Of a stretch of 5,401 nt of DNA, positions 2,162-4,107 are shown one piece after another. A program made the position numbers and the translations under genes. Location: contig JAGAUM010000003.1 in the NCBI GenBank assembly GCA_017620795.1, forward strand, positions 1 to 5,401, read 5' to 3'. The notes under the pieces are model-generated. The model was not told where the DNA came from. It searched no databases and saw only the letters and a program-made list of their open reading frames with translations. How positions within the stretch are numbered: the first letter of the stretch is position 1; each line of letters opens with the position of its first letter. This DNA is from Clostridia bacterium (GTDB lineage Bacteria > Bacillota > Clostridia > RGIG8785).

Positions 2162-2198
2162 AAAAAGGACTTGGTTTTCCAAGTCCTTTAATCTTTTT
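2162..2198. terminator. Bidirectional intrinsic terminator between convergent transcripts
   Basis: A perfect 11-bp inverted repeat, AAAGGACTTGG (2164-2174) with CCAAGTCCTTT (2179-2189), encloses a TTTT loop. On the plus strand it is followed by a T-rich tract reading AATCTTTTT. On the minus strand it is followed by TTTTT (2162-2166). It ends the plus-strand operon and overlaps the stop codon of the convergent 65-aa minus-strand ORF, so it can serve both. Confidence 0.88.
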
Positions 2199-2385
2199 GT
2201 GAAAGTTCCTCTTGTTGCTCTTGTCGGAATTCGGCAGCAAGGGCATTAATCTCATCCCGTTCTTTCTCTAACCGCTTGCGATTCCGTCTGCCCAGATGCC
2301 CTGCCAAAAGCTCATTGGTCGCCACAGCCGTAACATCAAACAGCCGTAAAAACAGATTCCGATAAATCTCTACATAATCCTTCAT
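2188..2385 (-). CDS. Hypothetical 65-aa protein with charged coiled-coil-like tail
   Basis: Start chosen at ATG 2385 (MKDYVEIYRNLFLRLFDVT...) because GGGGTG lies 6 nt upstream. The longer in-frame opening to 2484 would translate through a terminator hairpin and a structured RNA, so it is rejected. The first half (about 3-30) looks like an amphipathic or hydrophobic helix typical of small Firmicute proteins that begin with a YxxLYxxLF-like pattern. The second half (about 33-65) is strongly charged (RRNRKRLEKERDEI), then Glu/Gln-rich, and could form a coiled coil. No catalytic motif or confident family is seen. The upstream terminator's U-tract ends only about 15 nt before the start codon, so expression probably depends on readthrough from the RNA2 promoter at 2571-2599. 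Its stop codon is inside the bidirectional terminator. Confidence 0.55.
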   Translation of the reverse strand: MKDYVEIYRNLFLRLFDVTAVATNELLAGHLGRRNRKRLEKERDEINALAAEFRQEQQEELSQKD

Positions 2386-2394
2386 CTTTTTCAC

Positions 2395-2436
2395 CCCAAT
2401 AAAAAAGTGCATGACCGAAATCATGCACCGAAAAAC
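2395..2436 (-). repeat. 42-bp direct repeat, copy 1 (terminator of RNA2)
   Basis: Identical over 42 bp to 2600-2641. On the minus strand it contains an 8-bp hairpin GTGCATGA/TCATGCAC (2421-2428 with 2407-2414) with a 6-nt loop, followed by TTTTTT (2401-2406). It is thus an intrinsic terminator on the minus strand only; on the plus strand the hairpin is followed by CCGAAAAA and cannot terminate. Confidence 0.9.
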
Positions 2437-2564
2437 ACATGACTTCGCTCTGTTGTCACACAGCAATCCCATACATTCGCACAAGAAAGAAAAGCCAAGT
2501 CTGCGTTTTTACCAAACACAAACTCGTGCGAATTTAATTATGGGATTTTAAAAAGCTATGTGAC
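2401..2564 (-). ncRNA. RNA2: predicted structured small RNA or leader, unrecognised
   Basis: A promoter at 2571-2599 predicts a start at G2564, and an intrinsic terminator ends the RNA at about 2401 (about 164 nt). The RNA folds as a long rod. P1 is 2555-2564 with 2455-2464, 10 pairs beginning at the first nucleotide. P2 is 2539-2547 with 2465-2473, 9 perfect pairs. P3 is 2523-2533 with 2475-2485, 11 pairs. A terminal hairpin is 2514-2522 with 2500-2508, 9 pairs with G-U, loop GGTAA. A pyrimidine-rich strand (2486-2499) lies between P3 and the terminal hairpin. An 18-nt single strand separates P1 from the terminator. About 39 pairs over 110 nt are not expected by chance and no long ORF explains them. 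It may act as a free sRNA or as an attenuating leader of the 65-aa ORF. I recognise no Rfam family. Confidence 0.68.
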
Positions 2565-2570
2565 GAAATT

Positions 2571-2599
2571 AGTATAACACAAATAACGAATCTCGTCAA
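2571..2599 (-). promoter_or_regulatory. Sigma-A-type promoter of RNA2
   Basis: On the minus strand TTGACG (2594-2599) is followed after 17 nt by TATACT (2571-2576). It begins directly after the upstream terminator repeat, so the two RNA units are back to back. The predicted start, 7 nt after the -10 box, is the first base of helix P1 of RNA2. Confidence 0.82.
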
Positions 2600-2641
2600 C
2601 CCAATAAAAAAGTGCATGACCGAAATCATGCACCGAAAAAC
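2600..2641 (-). repeat. 42-bp direct repeat, copy 2 (terminator of RNA1)
   Basis: Second identical copy, 205 bp from the first. The hairpin arms are 2626-2633 and 2612-2619, and the U-tract is 2606-2611 on the minus strand. A separate 5-bp hairpin CGTAG/CTACG with a G-rich loop (2641-2656) sits immediately upstream of it in RNA1. Confidence 0.9.
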
Positions 2642-2780
2642 GTAGCCCCCTCTACGGTTGCGATCCAGCAGAACAAGAACACAGAATAAGAGACCTTACA
2701 GTGTGCCTCAGGAGCGTACATTTTTACCAAATGGTATTATGCACTGCTCTGTAAGAATATTTACTTGTAGATTGTTTGGC
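2606..2780 (-). ncRNA. RNA1: predicted small RNA, tandem relative of RNA2
   Basis: The promoter at 2788-2816 predicts a start near 2780, and the terminator ends the RNA at about 2606 (about 175 nt). A long stem joins CTTACAG (2749-2755) to CTGTAAG (2695-2701). It continues as AGC, a bulged A, and GTGCAT (2739-2748) pairing with 2713-2721, leaving a 10-12-nt bulge on the 3' side. The apical loop contains TACC-ATTT-GGTA. A hairpin with a GGGGG loop (2641-2656) precedes the terminator. RNA1 shares with RNA2 the TTGACGAG promoter start, the 42-bp terminator block and TTTGGTAAAAA (2721-2731; in RNA2 2506-2516) at almost the same distance from the start. It has no ORF with a ribosome-binding site. 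The function is unknown. Confidence 0.6.
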
Positions 2781-2787
2781 AATTTTT

Positions 2788-2816
2788 ATTCTATCACAAT
2801 CTTTTCCCCTCGTCAA
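2788..2816 (-). promoter_or_regulatory. Sigma-A-type promoter of RNA1
   Basis: On the minus strand TTGACG (2811-2816), a 17-nt spacer and TAGAAT (2788-2793). It has the same -35 box, the same following AG and the same spacer length as the RNA2 promoter, consistent with a duplicated unit. It diverges from cwlJ. Confidence 0.75.
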
Positions 2817-2893: not shown

Positions 2894-3331
2894 ATGGCAT
2901 TATCCGAGCGAGAGCTTTTGGCGCGCATCATCCTCTGTGAAGCAGGGGGCGAAGGGGACGACGGCATGAAAGCGGTGGCATCGGTGGTCATGAACCGTGT
3001 TCATGTCACCTACGGAGAGTATGGTCGGTTACAGCCCACCATCCGTGCCACCCTGTTTCAGGAGGGGCAGTTCGACTGTGTCCGTGAAACCTTAAACGGA
3101 CGCTACAACCCCCAAAACATCTATAACATGCGCCCCACCGATGTGCACTTGAACATTGCCGACTGGGCGATTGCAGGAAACCGCCTGCCCAACTTAGGCT
3201 ATGCCCTATGGTACTTCAACCCCTTTTCCCCGTCCTGCCGACAGTTCTTTCCCTCGGAGGTGGGGCAGTTTGTCATCCGCATCGGCGACCATTGCTTTTA
3301 CAATCCAACGGAAGCTTATGCCAATACCTAA
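2894..3331 (+). CDS. cwlJ: CwlJ-type spore cortex hydrolase
   Basis: 145 aa, almost the length of B. subtilis CwlJ (142 aa), and formed entirely of one SleB/CwlJ hydrolase domain (Hydrolase_2). The conserved first block LLARIILCEAGGEGDDGMKA (about 8-27) carries the catalytic-type Glu (E16), followed by VVMNRV; later blocks are LWYFNP (105-110) and the C-terminal GDHCFYNPT (131-139). These enzymes degrade the muramic-lactam peptidoglycan of the spore cortex during germination. Like CwlJ and unlike SleB, it has no signal peptide or peptidoglycan-binding domain, consistent with synthesis in the mother cell and deposition in the coat. Start: ATG with AAGGAGG (2881-2887) 6 nt upstream. gerQ follows after 11 nt, as in the Bacillus cwlJ-gerQ operon, which strongly supports the identity over sleB. 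Confidence 0.93.
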   Translation: MALSERELLARIILCEAGGEGDDGMKAVASVVMNRVHVTYGEYGRLQPTIRATLFQEGQFDCVRETLNGRYNPQNIYNMRPTDVHLNIADWAIAGNRLPNLGYALWYFNPFSPSCRQFFPSEVGQFVIRIGDHCFYNPTEAYANT

Positions 3332-3342
3332 AGGAGGTTTAT

Positions 3343-3831
3343 ATGAACGAGATTTCCAGTCCCAACAGCCCGTCCTATTCGGTCAACCAGGACGGAAGCT
3401 GGTCTCTCAACGGCAATCAGGAGCCTTACCAAGCCCCCACCATTGCCCCCAACAGTGACGGCACCTATCGGGTCATGGGCTTTGTCACGCCACCGCCCAT
3501 TGACTTTGATACCGAGGAGATGCGTGGCTCCATCCAGTACATCTTATCCAAAAACATTGGCGAGTATGTACTGGTGGAATTTCTAATCGGCACCCAGGAA
3601 ATCACCCGTAAGCAGGGGATTTTATTCTATGTAGGCACCAGTTTTATCACCCTTTATGATGACGAGCGGAATAACTTCATTGTCTGTGATGTGTTCTCGG
3701 TAAAGTTTGTCTACTTCTACCTGCCGGGACAGCGTCCCGACTTCAATGTCAACGCCGTTCCCGAGCCGACCCGAACCACAACAGGCGGCATGGCAGCAGG
3801 GCTCTCCCCCAACTCGGTTCGAAGAAGATAA
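3343..3831 (+). CDS. gerQ: Spore coat protein GerQ
   Basis: 162 aa. In Bacillus, GerQ is a coat protein required for CwlJ localisation and activity in Ca-DPA-triggered germination, and it is cross-linked by transglutaminase Tgl. The N-terminal 55 residues are low-complexity, rich in Asn, Ser, Pro and Gln, as usual. The conserved GerQ domain follows (about 62-128): SIQYILSKNIGEYVLVEF, a central strand pair with GILFYVGTSFITLYDDE, then NNFIVCDVFSVKFVYFYLPG, matching the order of the Bacillus C-terminal domain. A Pro/Thr/Gly-rich basic tail ends VRRR. Start: ATG 3343 with AAGGAGG 5 nt upstream; the in-frame ATG 3208 lies inside cwlJ and has no such site. The stop TAA overlaps the TA border of a MITE-like element. 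If the element is removed the stop is still TAA, so the insertion did not alter the protein. Confidence 0.92.
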   Translation: MNEISSPNSPSYSVNQDGSWSLNGNQEPYQAPTIAPNSDGTYRVMGFVTPPPIDFDTEEMRGSIQYILSKNIGEYVLVEFLIGTQEITRKQGILFYVGTSFITLYDDERNNFIVCDVFSVKFVYFYLPGQRPDFNVNAVPEPTRTTTGGMAAGLSPNSVRRR

Positions 3832-4107
3832 GCCGAAGGGAGTCGAACACAATAGGGTTTTAATCGGCATATTTTTCGTAATCATTCGTTGAAATGCTCG
3901 CGAATATGGTCGATATTCGCTCCGCTTTCGCCTTTGCTTGCCAAAAAATCTGCTCGTTTAAAACGCTTCGCCTCTATTCACCGAGAAATTTTATGGATTT
4001 CCGGTGCGGCAGGATGCAGTAAGGCTGACGCCTTACAAAGACGACAATCCGGAAAGACGGAAATTTCGCATGAATAGAGCCTATGGGGTTCAACTCCCTT
4101 CGGCTTA
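3829..4107. mobile_element. MITE-like foldback element with TA target duplication
   Basis: Terminal inverted repeats of 27 bp (3830-3856 and 4080-4106) match at 24 of 27 positions and begin AAGCCGAAGGGAGT. TA at 3829-3830 and at 4106-4107 is consistent with a TA target duplication, as in IS630/Tc1-mariner-related MITEs, leaving a 275-bp element (3831-4105). Inside is nested symmetry: GCGAATAT/ATATTCGC (3900-3907 with 3913-3920), CTCTATTC/GAATAGAG (3972-3979 with 4072-4079), GAAATTT/AAATTTC (3985-3991 with 4061-4067), TTTCCGG/CCGGAAA (3998-4004 with 4049-4055), and a hairpin GTAAGGC-TGAC-GCCTTAC (4019-4036). No transposase or credible ORF is present, so it would move in trans or is inert. It also fills the 300-bp gap between gerQ and the next gene. 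Confidence 0.75.

What the first reader, a model, noticed from the sequence alone, without database searches (positions are those of the whole stretch)
2395..2816. Two tandem small-RNA units with identical terminators and a shared TTTGGTAAAAA motif
Back to back on the minus strand lie two units, each with a TTGACG-17-TAxAxT promoter and ending in the same 42-bp terminator block (2600-2641 and 2395-2436, 205 bp apart). Both contain TTTGGTAAAAA (2721-2731 and 2506-2516), about 50 and 48 nt from their predicted starts. Otherwise the bodies have diverged, yet each retains long stems that put this motif in or beside the apical loop. This looks like duplication followed by divergence of a regulatory RNA. 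I recognise no described family. The conserved apical motif could be the target-pairing or protein-binding part.
Basis: partly seen in the sequence, partly recalled or inferred. Interest (0 to 1): 0.7.

Follow-up and report, generated by a model that had tools for sequence, protein, structure and literature searches.

The report
RNA leader switches of gut Clostridia
The two neighbouring units belong to a family of RNA leaders, without a match in the Rfam catalogue and found in a quarter of the sampled genomes of this bacterial class, that likely switch the gene behind them on or off by choosing between two foldings, while some copies without a gene may make an RNA that would control the others.

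Summary
The window's genome (63% complete) holds at least four units. A model built from 57 units finds the family in 98 of 391 sampled genomes of the class, with up to 25 copies in one genome, and only in the window's own genome in a phylum sample of 398. No tested unit matches Rfam. Each unit is promoter, P1/P2 rod, apical motif, linker, terminator. The -10 box ends 6 nt before P1 in 86 of 99 units. The apical AAAAAYGYR pairs with the linker before the terminator (pseudoknot, compensatory changes); the same linker can pair with the terminator's 5' arm (antiterminator, weaker support). In 81 of 123 pattern-found units an ORF starts 15-40 nt after the terminator, against 8 of 132 control terminators. 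Best reading: a transcription attenuator, signal unknown. u2 is an intact leader of a 65-aa ORF; u1 has no ORF and a nearly lost antiterminator. Of 34 ORF-less units examined, 15 carry downstream a stretch antisense to the family's P1 3' strand and spacer (0 of 81 ORF-led): a possible trans-acting RNA layer. No expression data.

The parts
2788..2816 (-). u1 promoter: -35 TTGACG (2816-2811), 17 nt, -10 TAGAAT (2793-2788)
   Evidence: 10/12
2606..2781 (-). u1 RNA (predicted start near 2781): ORF-less member of the family
   Evidence: R1 match 64.9 bits at 2607-2776; fold z -3.1
2772..2780 (-). u1 P1 5' strand GCCAAACAA; its 3' partner is interrupted by a 4-nt bulge (read by eye)
   Evidence: coordinates; sequence
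2712..2731 (-). u1 apical motif TTTGGTAAAAA (2731-2721) and pseudoknot strand AAAAATGTACGCTC (2725-2712)
   Evidence: duplex with linker -13.9 kcal/mol
2636..2650 (-). u1 linker GGGGGCTACGTTTTT: can pair with the apical strand; pairing with terminator 5' arm nearly lost
   Evidence: pseudoknot -13.9, antiterminator -2.9
2606..2633 (-). u1 terminator hairpin and T-run
2571..2599 (-). u2 promoter: -35 TTGACG (2599-2594), 17 nt, -10 TATACT (2576-2571); 6 nt to P1, as in 86 of 99 family members
2401..2564 (-). u2 RNA (predicted start 2564): intact leader, R1 109.4 bits at 2402-2565
2455..2564 (-). u2 P1: GTCACATAGC (2564-2555) with GCTGTGTGAC (2464-2455)
   Evidence: P1 covariation in family
2467..2545 (-). 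u2 P2 rod: TCCCATA (2545-2539)/TATGGGA (2473-2467) and ATTCGCAC (2533-2526)/GTGCGAAT (2482-2475)
2496..2525 (-). u2 P3 hairpin GAGTTTGTG/CGCAGACTTG with loop TTTGGTAAAAA (2516-2506)
2497..2510 (-). u2 pseudoknot strand s2 AAAAACGCAGACTT
   Evidence: duplex with linker -14.7 kcal/mol; family covariation
2431..2445 (-). u2 linker s4 AAGTCATGTGTTTTT: predicted to pair with s2 (pseudoknot) or with terminator 5' arm (antiterminator, -15.5 kcal/mol)
   Evidence: family
2401..2428 (-). u2 terminator hairpin and T-run
2188..2385 (-). 65-aa ORF predicted to be controlled by u2; start codon 2385-2383, GGGG at 2397-2394 as likely ribosome-binding site
   Evidence: (frame); two database entries (one identical, one 97%), no family

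Best explanation
The units are members of a leader-RNA family of Clostridia, without a match in Rfam, that likely act as transcription attenuators: the linker before the terminator would pair in the predicted OFF state with the conserved apical loop (pseudoknot), which leaves the terminator free to form, and in the predicted ON state with the terminator's own 5' arm (antiterminator), which would let transcription run into the gene that starts about 20 nt further on. Shown by comparison: P1, P2, the pseudoknot and the terminator are kept by compensatory changes, the antiterminator with weaker support; the start of P1 has a fixed distance from the -10 box; an ORF with a ribosome-binding site follows 81 of 123 pattern-found units at a narrow spacing. 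Predicted: which folding is ON or OFF. Unknown: the signal that decides (metabolite, protein, or RNA). In this window u2 would be a working switch for the 65-aa ORF, and u1 a diverged, ORF-less copy that most likely always terminates.
For: At least four units in the genome. Alignment A1 of 57 units (54 of the 60 short-type units with a clear P1, plus three from this genome; 131 units in hand): P1 + pseudoknot + terminator, 97.8% of cells paired against 87.1% shuffled, 192 double-changed cells against 56.5, 0 of 500 shuffles as high; slid controls 30-57%. In 47 model-found rows, not chosen by the motif, 96.8% against 82.4%, 171 against 43.6 (the model's structure did not contain the pseudoknot). 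Antiterminator on A1: 94.2% against 90.8%, 27 double-changed cells against 11.0, 0 of 500. Swapping partners between units: pseudoknot z -9.5 and -5.5 (short and long type), antiterminator -7.1 and -2.5, P2 -30 and -18; negative controls -0.4 to -1.9 within types, -0.5 and -2.6 over all units. 45 model-found units: pseudoknot -9.5, antiterminator -5.9, control -1.6. Blocking the linker raises mean terminator pairs from 4.2 to 9.6 over 127 units. ORF start within 15-40 nt in 81 of 123 units against 8 of 132 other terminators of loci L035-L153. Promoter of at least 9 of 12 in 81 of 99, against 4% of shuffles; -10 exactly 6 nt before P1 in 86 of 99.
Against: No transcript or reporter data. For the antiterminator two of five measures do not exceed shuffles (pairs with double change 5 against 3.7, 112 of 500 as high; further pair types 18 against 17.0, 132 of 500), and support is weak in the long type (z -2.5). 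ORF-less units keep the antiterminator as well as ORF-led ones (-11.5 kcal/mol in both, p = 0.68), so its upkeep does not by itself depend on a downstream ORF. Of 45 model-found units only 22 have an ORF within 40 nt and 31 within 150 nt. Downstream genes share no function (44 Pfam families over 96 proteins, the commonest in 7), so no ligand suggests itself. With a free linker the antiterminator dominates in 74 and the terminator in 53 of 127 at equilibrium. Shuffle controls ignore relatedness. The invariance of TTTGGTAAAAA and TTTTTCGG in A1 comes from the search pattern; in model-found units the loop varies while A5 stays.
Confidence: 0.75

Rival explanations
1. The units are genes for stand-alone trans-acting small RNAs that simply end at their terminators; the ORF behind them is incidental.
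For: Own promoter with fixed distance to P1; 24 of 131 pattern-found units have no ORF, 3 not evaluable, and 14 of 45 model-found units have none; u1 and u3 have none; ORF-less units keep the switch pairings.
Against: ORF start at 15-40 nt in 81 of 123 units against 8 of 132 control terminators; the antiterminator pairing has no purpose in an RNA that always ends there.
Confidence: 0.13
2. It is a metabolite-binding riboswitch class in the strict sense: P1/P2, the internal ATA, the spacer CA and the pseudoknot form a pocket for a small molecule. (A special case of the best explanation.)
For: Nearly invariant patches outside the stems, ATA after P1 and CA in the spacer; pseudoknot plus terminator platform; many copies per genome, as for second-messenger riboswitches (recalled).
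Against: No coherent gene function behind the units; the loop UUUGG is not conserved in model-found units; the fixed transcription start at P1 is unusual for riboswitches (recalled); no ligand tested.
Confidence: 0.35
3. The downstream antisense stretches of ORF-less units are relics of inverted half-copies that arose by template switching at the palindromic terminator, without function.
For: Some lie right behind the terminator in the order expected of an inverted 3' half (L149, L223); the anti-linker part is on average weak (-7.8 against -6.4 shuffled).
Against: They are not matched to their own unit (mean percentile 0.53 of the family, 16 elements), while the 10-nt core stays recognisable in 15 of 34 ORF-less units and 0 of 81 ORF-led; 11 of 16 are followed by a second terminator by a simple rule.
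Confidence: 0.3
4. A type III toxin-antitoxin arrangement: an RNA antitoxin, a terminator, and a toxin gene.
For: Same order of parts (recalled): RNA, terminator, ORF; pseudoknotted RNA.
Against: Downstream proteins are diverse, many with signal-peptide-like N-termini, some with leucine-rich repeats; the RNA is one structured unit, not repeats of an antitoxin.
Confidence: 0.02

Closest known systems
Transcription-terminating riboswitches and orphan riboswitch candidates (as a kind)
   Same: Structured leader, terminator against antiterminator, short distance to the ORF, many loci per genome
   Different: No ligand known, downstream genes without common function, transcription start predicted at a fixed place at P1, no Rfam 15 match on tested units
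pT181/pIP501-type antisense transcription attenuators (recalled; for pT181 passages of PMC3753616 were seen; pIP501 only in a listing)
   Same: A leader with terminator and antiterminator; a possible antisense RNA in trans
   Different: A family of many genomic loci; the antisense stretch would come from read-through of ORF-less family members, not from the opposite strand of the target; one unit searched in plasmid records gave no match
SLH motif, riboswitch candidate of Stav et al. 2019 (PMC6429828, passages seen)
   Same: Clostridia among its hosts; surface-protein genes downstream
   Different: About 60% of SLH motifs precede S-layer-homology genes; here the SLH domain is in 1 of 96 downstream proteins.
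Type III toxin-antitoxin loci (ToxIN, CptIN; starts of abstracts seen in a listing)
   Same: RNA, terminator, ORF order (recalled); pseudoknots
   Different: No repeats, no common toxin family among the downstream families shown

Membership tests
Known Rfam family | Score at or above a family's gathering cut-off | tested here: not met
   Window: 5 matches up to E 1, all outside 2395-2816 and below gathering; 18 and 20 loci with units, gathering: 0 matches and 5 matches, none on a unit; 7 loci at E up to 5: 4 matches, none on a unit
Transcription attenuator leader | Terminator followed closely by an ORF on the same strand | tested here: met
   81 of 123 against 8 of 132 controls; 22 of 45 in the model-found set; u2 yes, u1 no
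Transcription attenuator leader | Mutually exclusive antiterminator supported by comparison | tested here: met
   two of five measures not above shuffles; weak in the long type
Transcription attenuator leader | Conditional read-through | not testable with these tools
   No transcript data
Metabolite riboswitch | Binds a small molecule | not testable with these tools
   -
Metabolite riboswitch | Downstream genes share a pathway | tested here: not met
   44 Pfam families over 96 proteins
Antisense-controlled attenuator (pT181-like) | A trans RNA complementary to the leader | tested here: inconclusive
   Antisense stretch in 15 of 34 ORF-less units; RNA not shown to exist
Type III toxin-antitoxin | Antitoxin RNA made of tandem repeats | tested here: not met
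   Within 2150-2900 the only long repeat is the terminator block; aligned units are single structures
Type III toxin-antitoxin | Downstream endoribonuclease toxin | tested here: inconclusive
   None among the 25 Pfam families shown of 44

The most novel reading that the evidence does not exclude
An RNA-only regulon: up to dozens of genes per genome in gut Clostridia carry the same strand-exchange leader, and ORF-less copies of that leader make antisense RNAs, by read-through, that invade the P1 3' strand and spacer of the other leaders and so set the whole regulon, including themselves.
Probability: 0.3. Interest if true: 0.92.

Novelty: new variant of a known kind. Interest (0 to 1): 0.75.

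Why it matters
A structured leader present in 98 of 391 sampled genomes of the class, in up to 25 copies, with no Rfam match would be a sizeable gap in what is known of gene control in gut bacteria. It offers a natural example of strand exchange (apical loop, linker, terminator) and, if the antisense layer is real, a genomic RNA network that controls unrelated accessory and surface genes together. The fixed promoter-to-P1 distance and the conserved spacer give direct handles for experiments.

Tried and rejected
Stand-alone sRNA as the whole answer: set aside after the ORF-spacing test. An upstream peptide starting at the AAAAATG of the apical motif: rejected by eye, since many members read AAAAACG. 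DNA-DNA search in genus, family and order: only the window's own genome is held there. Viral contigs: 5 pattern hits; four were judged by eye not to be units and dropped, L031 was kept. L132 was dropped as a false hit. For the type sets, 30 of 131 units were left out because the script found no clear P1 or no terminator, and 6 of the 60 short-type units (long inserts) were not aligned. Two weak rows of A3 were kept and dropped. Of 14 ORF-less model-found units 10 went into the antisense count; L221 first copy and L214 repeat units already counted, and L208 first unit and L184 first unit run into a second unit. In one search, L240 was left out and L172 was replaced by L017 (same place), because their loci are cut short by a contig end. 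Phage records: 3 matches to one unit, but L224 and L226 look to me like bacterial DNA (ORFs read by eye), so no claim that phages carry the family. Plasmids: none with the same one unit. Similarity of the window ORF (searched without its first codon) to the u4 ORF: none; its likeness to recurrent 60-67-aa ORFs (YKxLYFHLFGKVADVIEEY) is by eye only, and Pfam and NCBIfam give the window ORF nothing. Duplex energies of long downstream stretches were too noisy to show the antisense; the motif count was used instead. That motif was thought of after seeing the sequences, on the same units, so its p value (8e-10) is optimistic. Papers: listings; passages by word search only in PMC8040213, PMC11109978, PMC8632094, PMC6429828, PMC3753616; no mention of this family seen. 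PMC8040213 lists thousands of candidates in supplements that could not be read, so an earlier prediction there is not excluded.

Full report
What is there. On the minus strand lie two units, u1 (promoter 2816-2788, RNA to about 2606) and u2 (promoter 2599-2571, RNA to about 2401). u2 folds far better than shuffles (z -7.5), u1 less so (z -3.1). A 65-aa frame starts at 2385, 8 nt behind a GGGG and 15 nt behind the T-run of u2's terminator (sequence). A protein search that needs shared exact words found two entries, one identical (perhaps this genome's own) and one 97% identical; no family matches.

More than two. The genome is a 63%-complete MAG of 1.2 Mb, the only held genome of its order. Its terminator and motif led to two more units: u3 on contig C145 (L002) and u4 on contig C66 (L004), each with promoter, motif and terminator. 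The titles shown for 80 of these name Clostridia, Oscillospiraceae, Ruminococcaceae and the like, by their sample names mostly gut MAGs; the only isolate among the 80 is Pseudoflavonifractor sp. MSJ-30. After dropping four of five viral-contig hits and L132, 131 distinct units were in hand.

Architecture. P1 pairs the very start of the RNA with the strand before the spacer and linker; its types covary (GCCAAACAA/UUGUUUGGC, GCGACACAA/UUGUGUCGC, GCUACACAA/UUGUGUAGC and others). Alignment A1 (57 sequences: 54 of 60 short-type units with clear P1, plus u2, u3, u4) gives 15 of 21 predicted pairs with double changes. Adding the pseudoknot between the apical AAAAAYGYR and the linker YRYRUUUUU, 97.8% of cells pair (87.1% when shuffled) with 192 doubly changed cells (56.5 shuffled); no slid version exceeds 58%. 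The first base beyond the A5 run pairs in 128 of 128 distinct units (shuffled mean 110), as CG, UA or UG; further out the excess shrinks and some positions show none. Because the pattern forced part of these sequences, model R1 (structure P1 and terminator only) was used to collect 47 rows without the motif requirement: 96.8% paired against 82.4%, 171 double changes against 43.6, with new pseudoknot pairs such as AU for GC. There the A5 run stays (43 of 44 at its first position) while the loop before it varies (UCGG, UUGA and so on). Two of the 47 rows are weak and probably spurious; they were kept and dropped.

The switch. The same linker can pair with the terminator's 5' arm: 94.2% of cells against 90.8%, 27 double-changed cells against 11.0, both above all 500 shuffles; but the number of pairs with a double change (5 against 3.7) and of further pair types (18 against 17.0) are not above shuffles. 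Swapping partners between units weakens the pseudoknot (z -9.5 short type, -5.5 long type), the antiterminator (-7.1, -2.5), P2 (-30, -18) and, in the short type only, a local hairpin P3 (-9.8; long type -0.5); controls give -0.4 to -1.9 within types and -0.5 and -2.6 over all units. In 45 model-found units the values are -9.5, -5.9, -15 and, for P3, -8.3, control -1.6. With the linker free the antiterminator outweighs the terminator in 74 of 127 units, the reverse in 53, and blocking the linker, as a pseudoknot would, raises the mean terminator pairs from 4.2 to 9.6. From this I infer: pseudoknot = terminator = OFF, antiterminator = ON. The direction and the signal are untested.

A leader. 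In 97 of 123 evaluable pattern-found units an ORF of at least 40 aa (or open at the end of held DNA) with a ribosome-binding site starts within 150 nt, counted from the fourth T of the T-run, and in 81 within 15-40 nt (median 22); for 132 other terminators of loci L035-L153 the numbers are 28 and 8. In 45 model-found units on 40 stretches chosen from six genomes the numbers are 31 and 22. The -10 box ends exactly 6 nt before P1 in 86 of 99 units, so the RNA likely begins with P1. Downstream proteins are diverse: of 96 scanned, 7 have BspA-type leucine-rich repeats, others zinc ribbons, SHOCT, WG repeats, SLOG, helix-turn-helix; 44 families in all, 25 shown. 48 of 97 look like signal-peptide or membrane N-termini by a crude rule.

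Spread. R1 finds the family in 98 of 391 class genomes, 56 of 222 genera, and in a phylum sample of 398 only in the window's genome (at least 14 of that sample belong to the class, the rest of its make-up is not shown, and weak matches are lost by the filters). In 18 genomes examined more fully, 14 of them chosen because they had the pattern, 17 match, with 2 to 25 copies. Tandem pairs like the window's recur: seven full pairs less than 350 nt apart can be read from the listings (G362:C33, G202:C1, G202:C13, G323:C18, G340:C115, G257:C80, G181:C14).

u1 against u2. In u2 pseudoknot and antiterminator are both strong (-14.7 and -15.5 kcal/mol). In u1 the pseudoknot remains (-13.9), the antiterminator is nearly gone (-2.9), P1 has a bulge by eye, and no ORF follows, only u2's promoter. 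u1 most likely always terminates. But this is not a rule for ORF-less units: across the family they keep the antiterminator (-11.5 in both groups) and the pseudoknot (-15.6 against -16.3, p = 0.29) as well as leaders do, while their terminators are somewhat weaker (-11.6 against -13.6, p = 0.001; 24 and 81 units).

An antisense layer. Reading the DNA behind ORF-less units, I saw stretches like GTCGCCAAAC, the reverse complement of P1 3' plus spacer. The motif GTYGCNDNAC occurs within 160 nt in 15 of 34 ORF-less units (24 pattern-found, 10 of 14 model-found), 0 of 81 ORF-led, 2 of 18 others; background 0.018 per 160 nt; reversed motif 0 of 34. In some (L149, L215, L042, L017) an anti-linker part precedes it, but on average that part is weak (-7.8 against -6.4 shuffled), and 11 of 16 have a second terminator by a simple rule. 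The stretch fits its own unit no better than a random family member (mean percentile 0.53 over 16). In two genomes 10 of 11 elements fit some other unit of the same genome better than their own and one ties (for example L228 to L242: 16 against 5), but the best of 11 to 13 others against one own is a lenient comparison: against the mean of the others, own is lower in 7 and higher in 4; units of other genomes often fit as well; two of the 11 elements are identical and one, L246, is ORF-led and may be chance. In the window's genome u3 carries such an element and fits only itself among the four (10 against 5.5-6). This points to RNAs acting in trans, but no RNA has been seen, the sign of the effect is open, and relic inverted half-copies remain possible.

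Known or new. No Rfam match on any tested unit. No paper found names it, within the searches listed; one large set of predicted RNAs from human microbiomes could not be checked because its supplements were out of reach (passages). I file it as a new class of a known kind, the attenuator leader, with an unusual strand-exchange design.

Noticed in passing
window 3831-4106: A stretch of about 275 nt with inverted ends (AGCCGAAGGGAGTCGAAC... / ...GTTCAACTCCCTTCGGCTT) between an ORF and a terminator; may be a small mobile or repeated element.
   Followed up: no
L002 1690-1730; L004 1340-1412 and 1825-1890: TGATATCA palindrome arrays upstream of the promoters of u3 and u4, and a second near-identical copy behind the ORF of u4; possible protein-binding or repeat element of this genome.
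   Followed up: no
L209, L198, L199, L200, L211: Recurrent 60-67-aa ORFs (YKxLYFHLFGKVADVIEEY...) behind members of the RNA family; no significant Pfam family for the two tested.
   Followed up: partly
L043, L051, L061, L064, L086, L114, L197, L206, L208: Recurrent small Cys-rich ORFs (GIELxPG...GNGE...CCCDEC) behind members of the RNA family in several genomes; no Pfam family for the two tested.
   Followed up: partly
L224 2076-2235 (MT835845.1): A member with a UACG loop in place of UUUG (TTTTTACTACGGTAAAAG), in a fecal 'phage' scaffold that looks bacterial to me.
   Followed up: partly
window 2894-3331: Cell-wall hydrolase gene (PF07486) divergent from u1; the ORF after it (3343-3831) matches no Pfam or NCBIfam family.
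   Followed up: no
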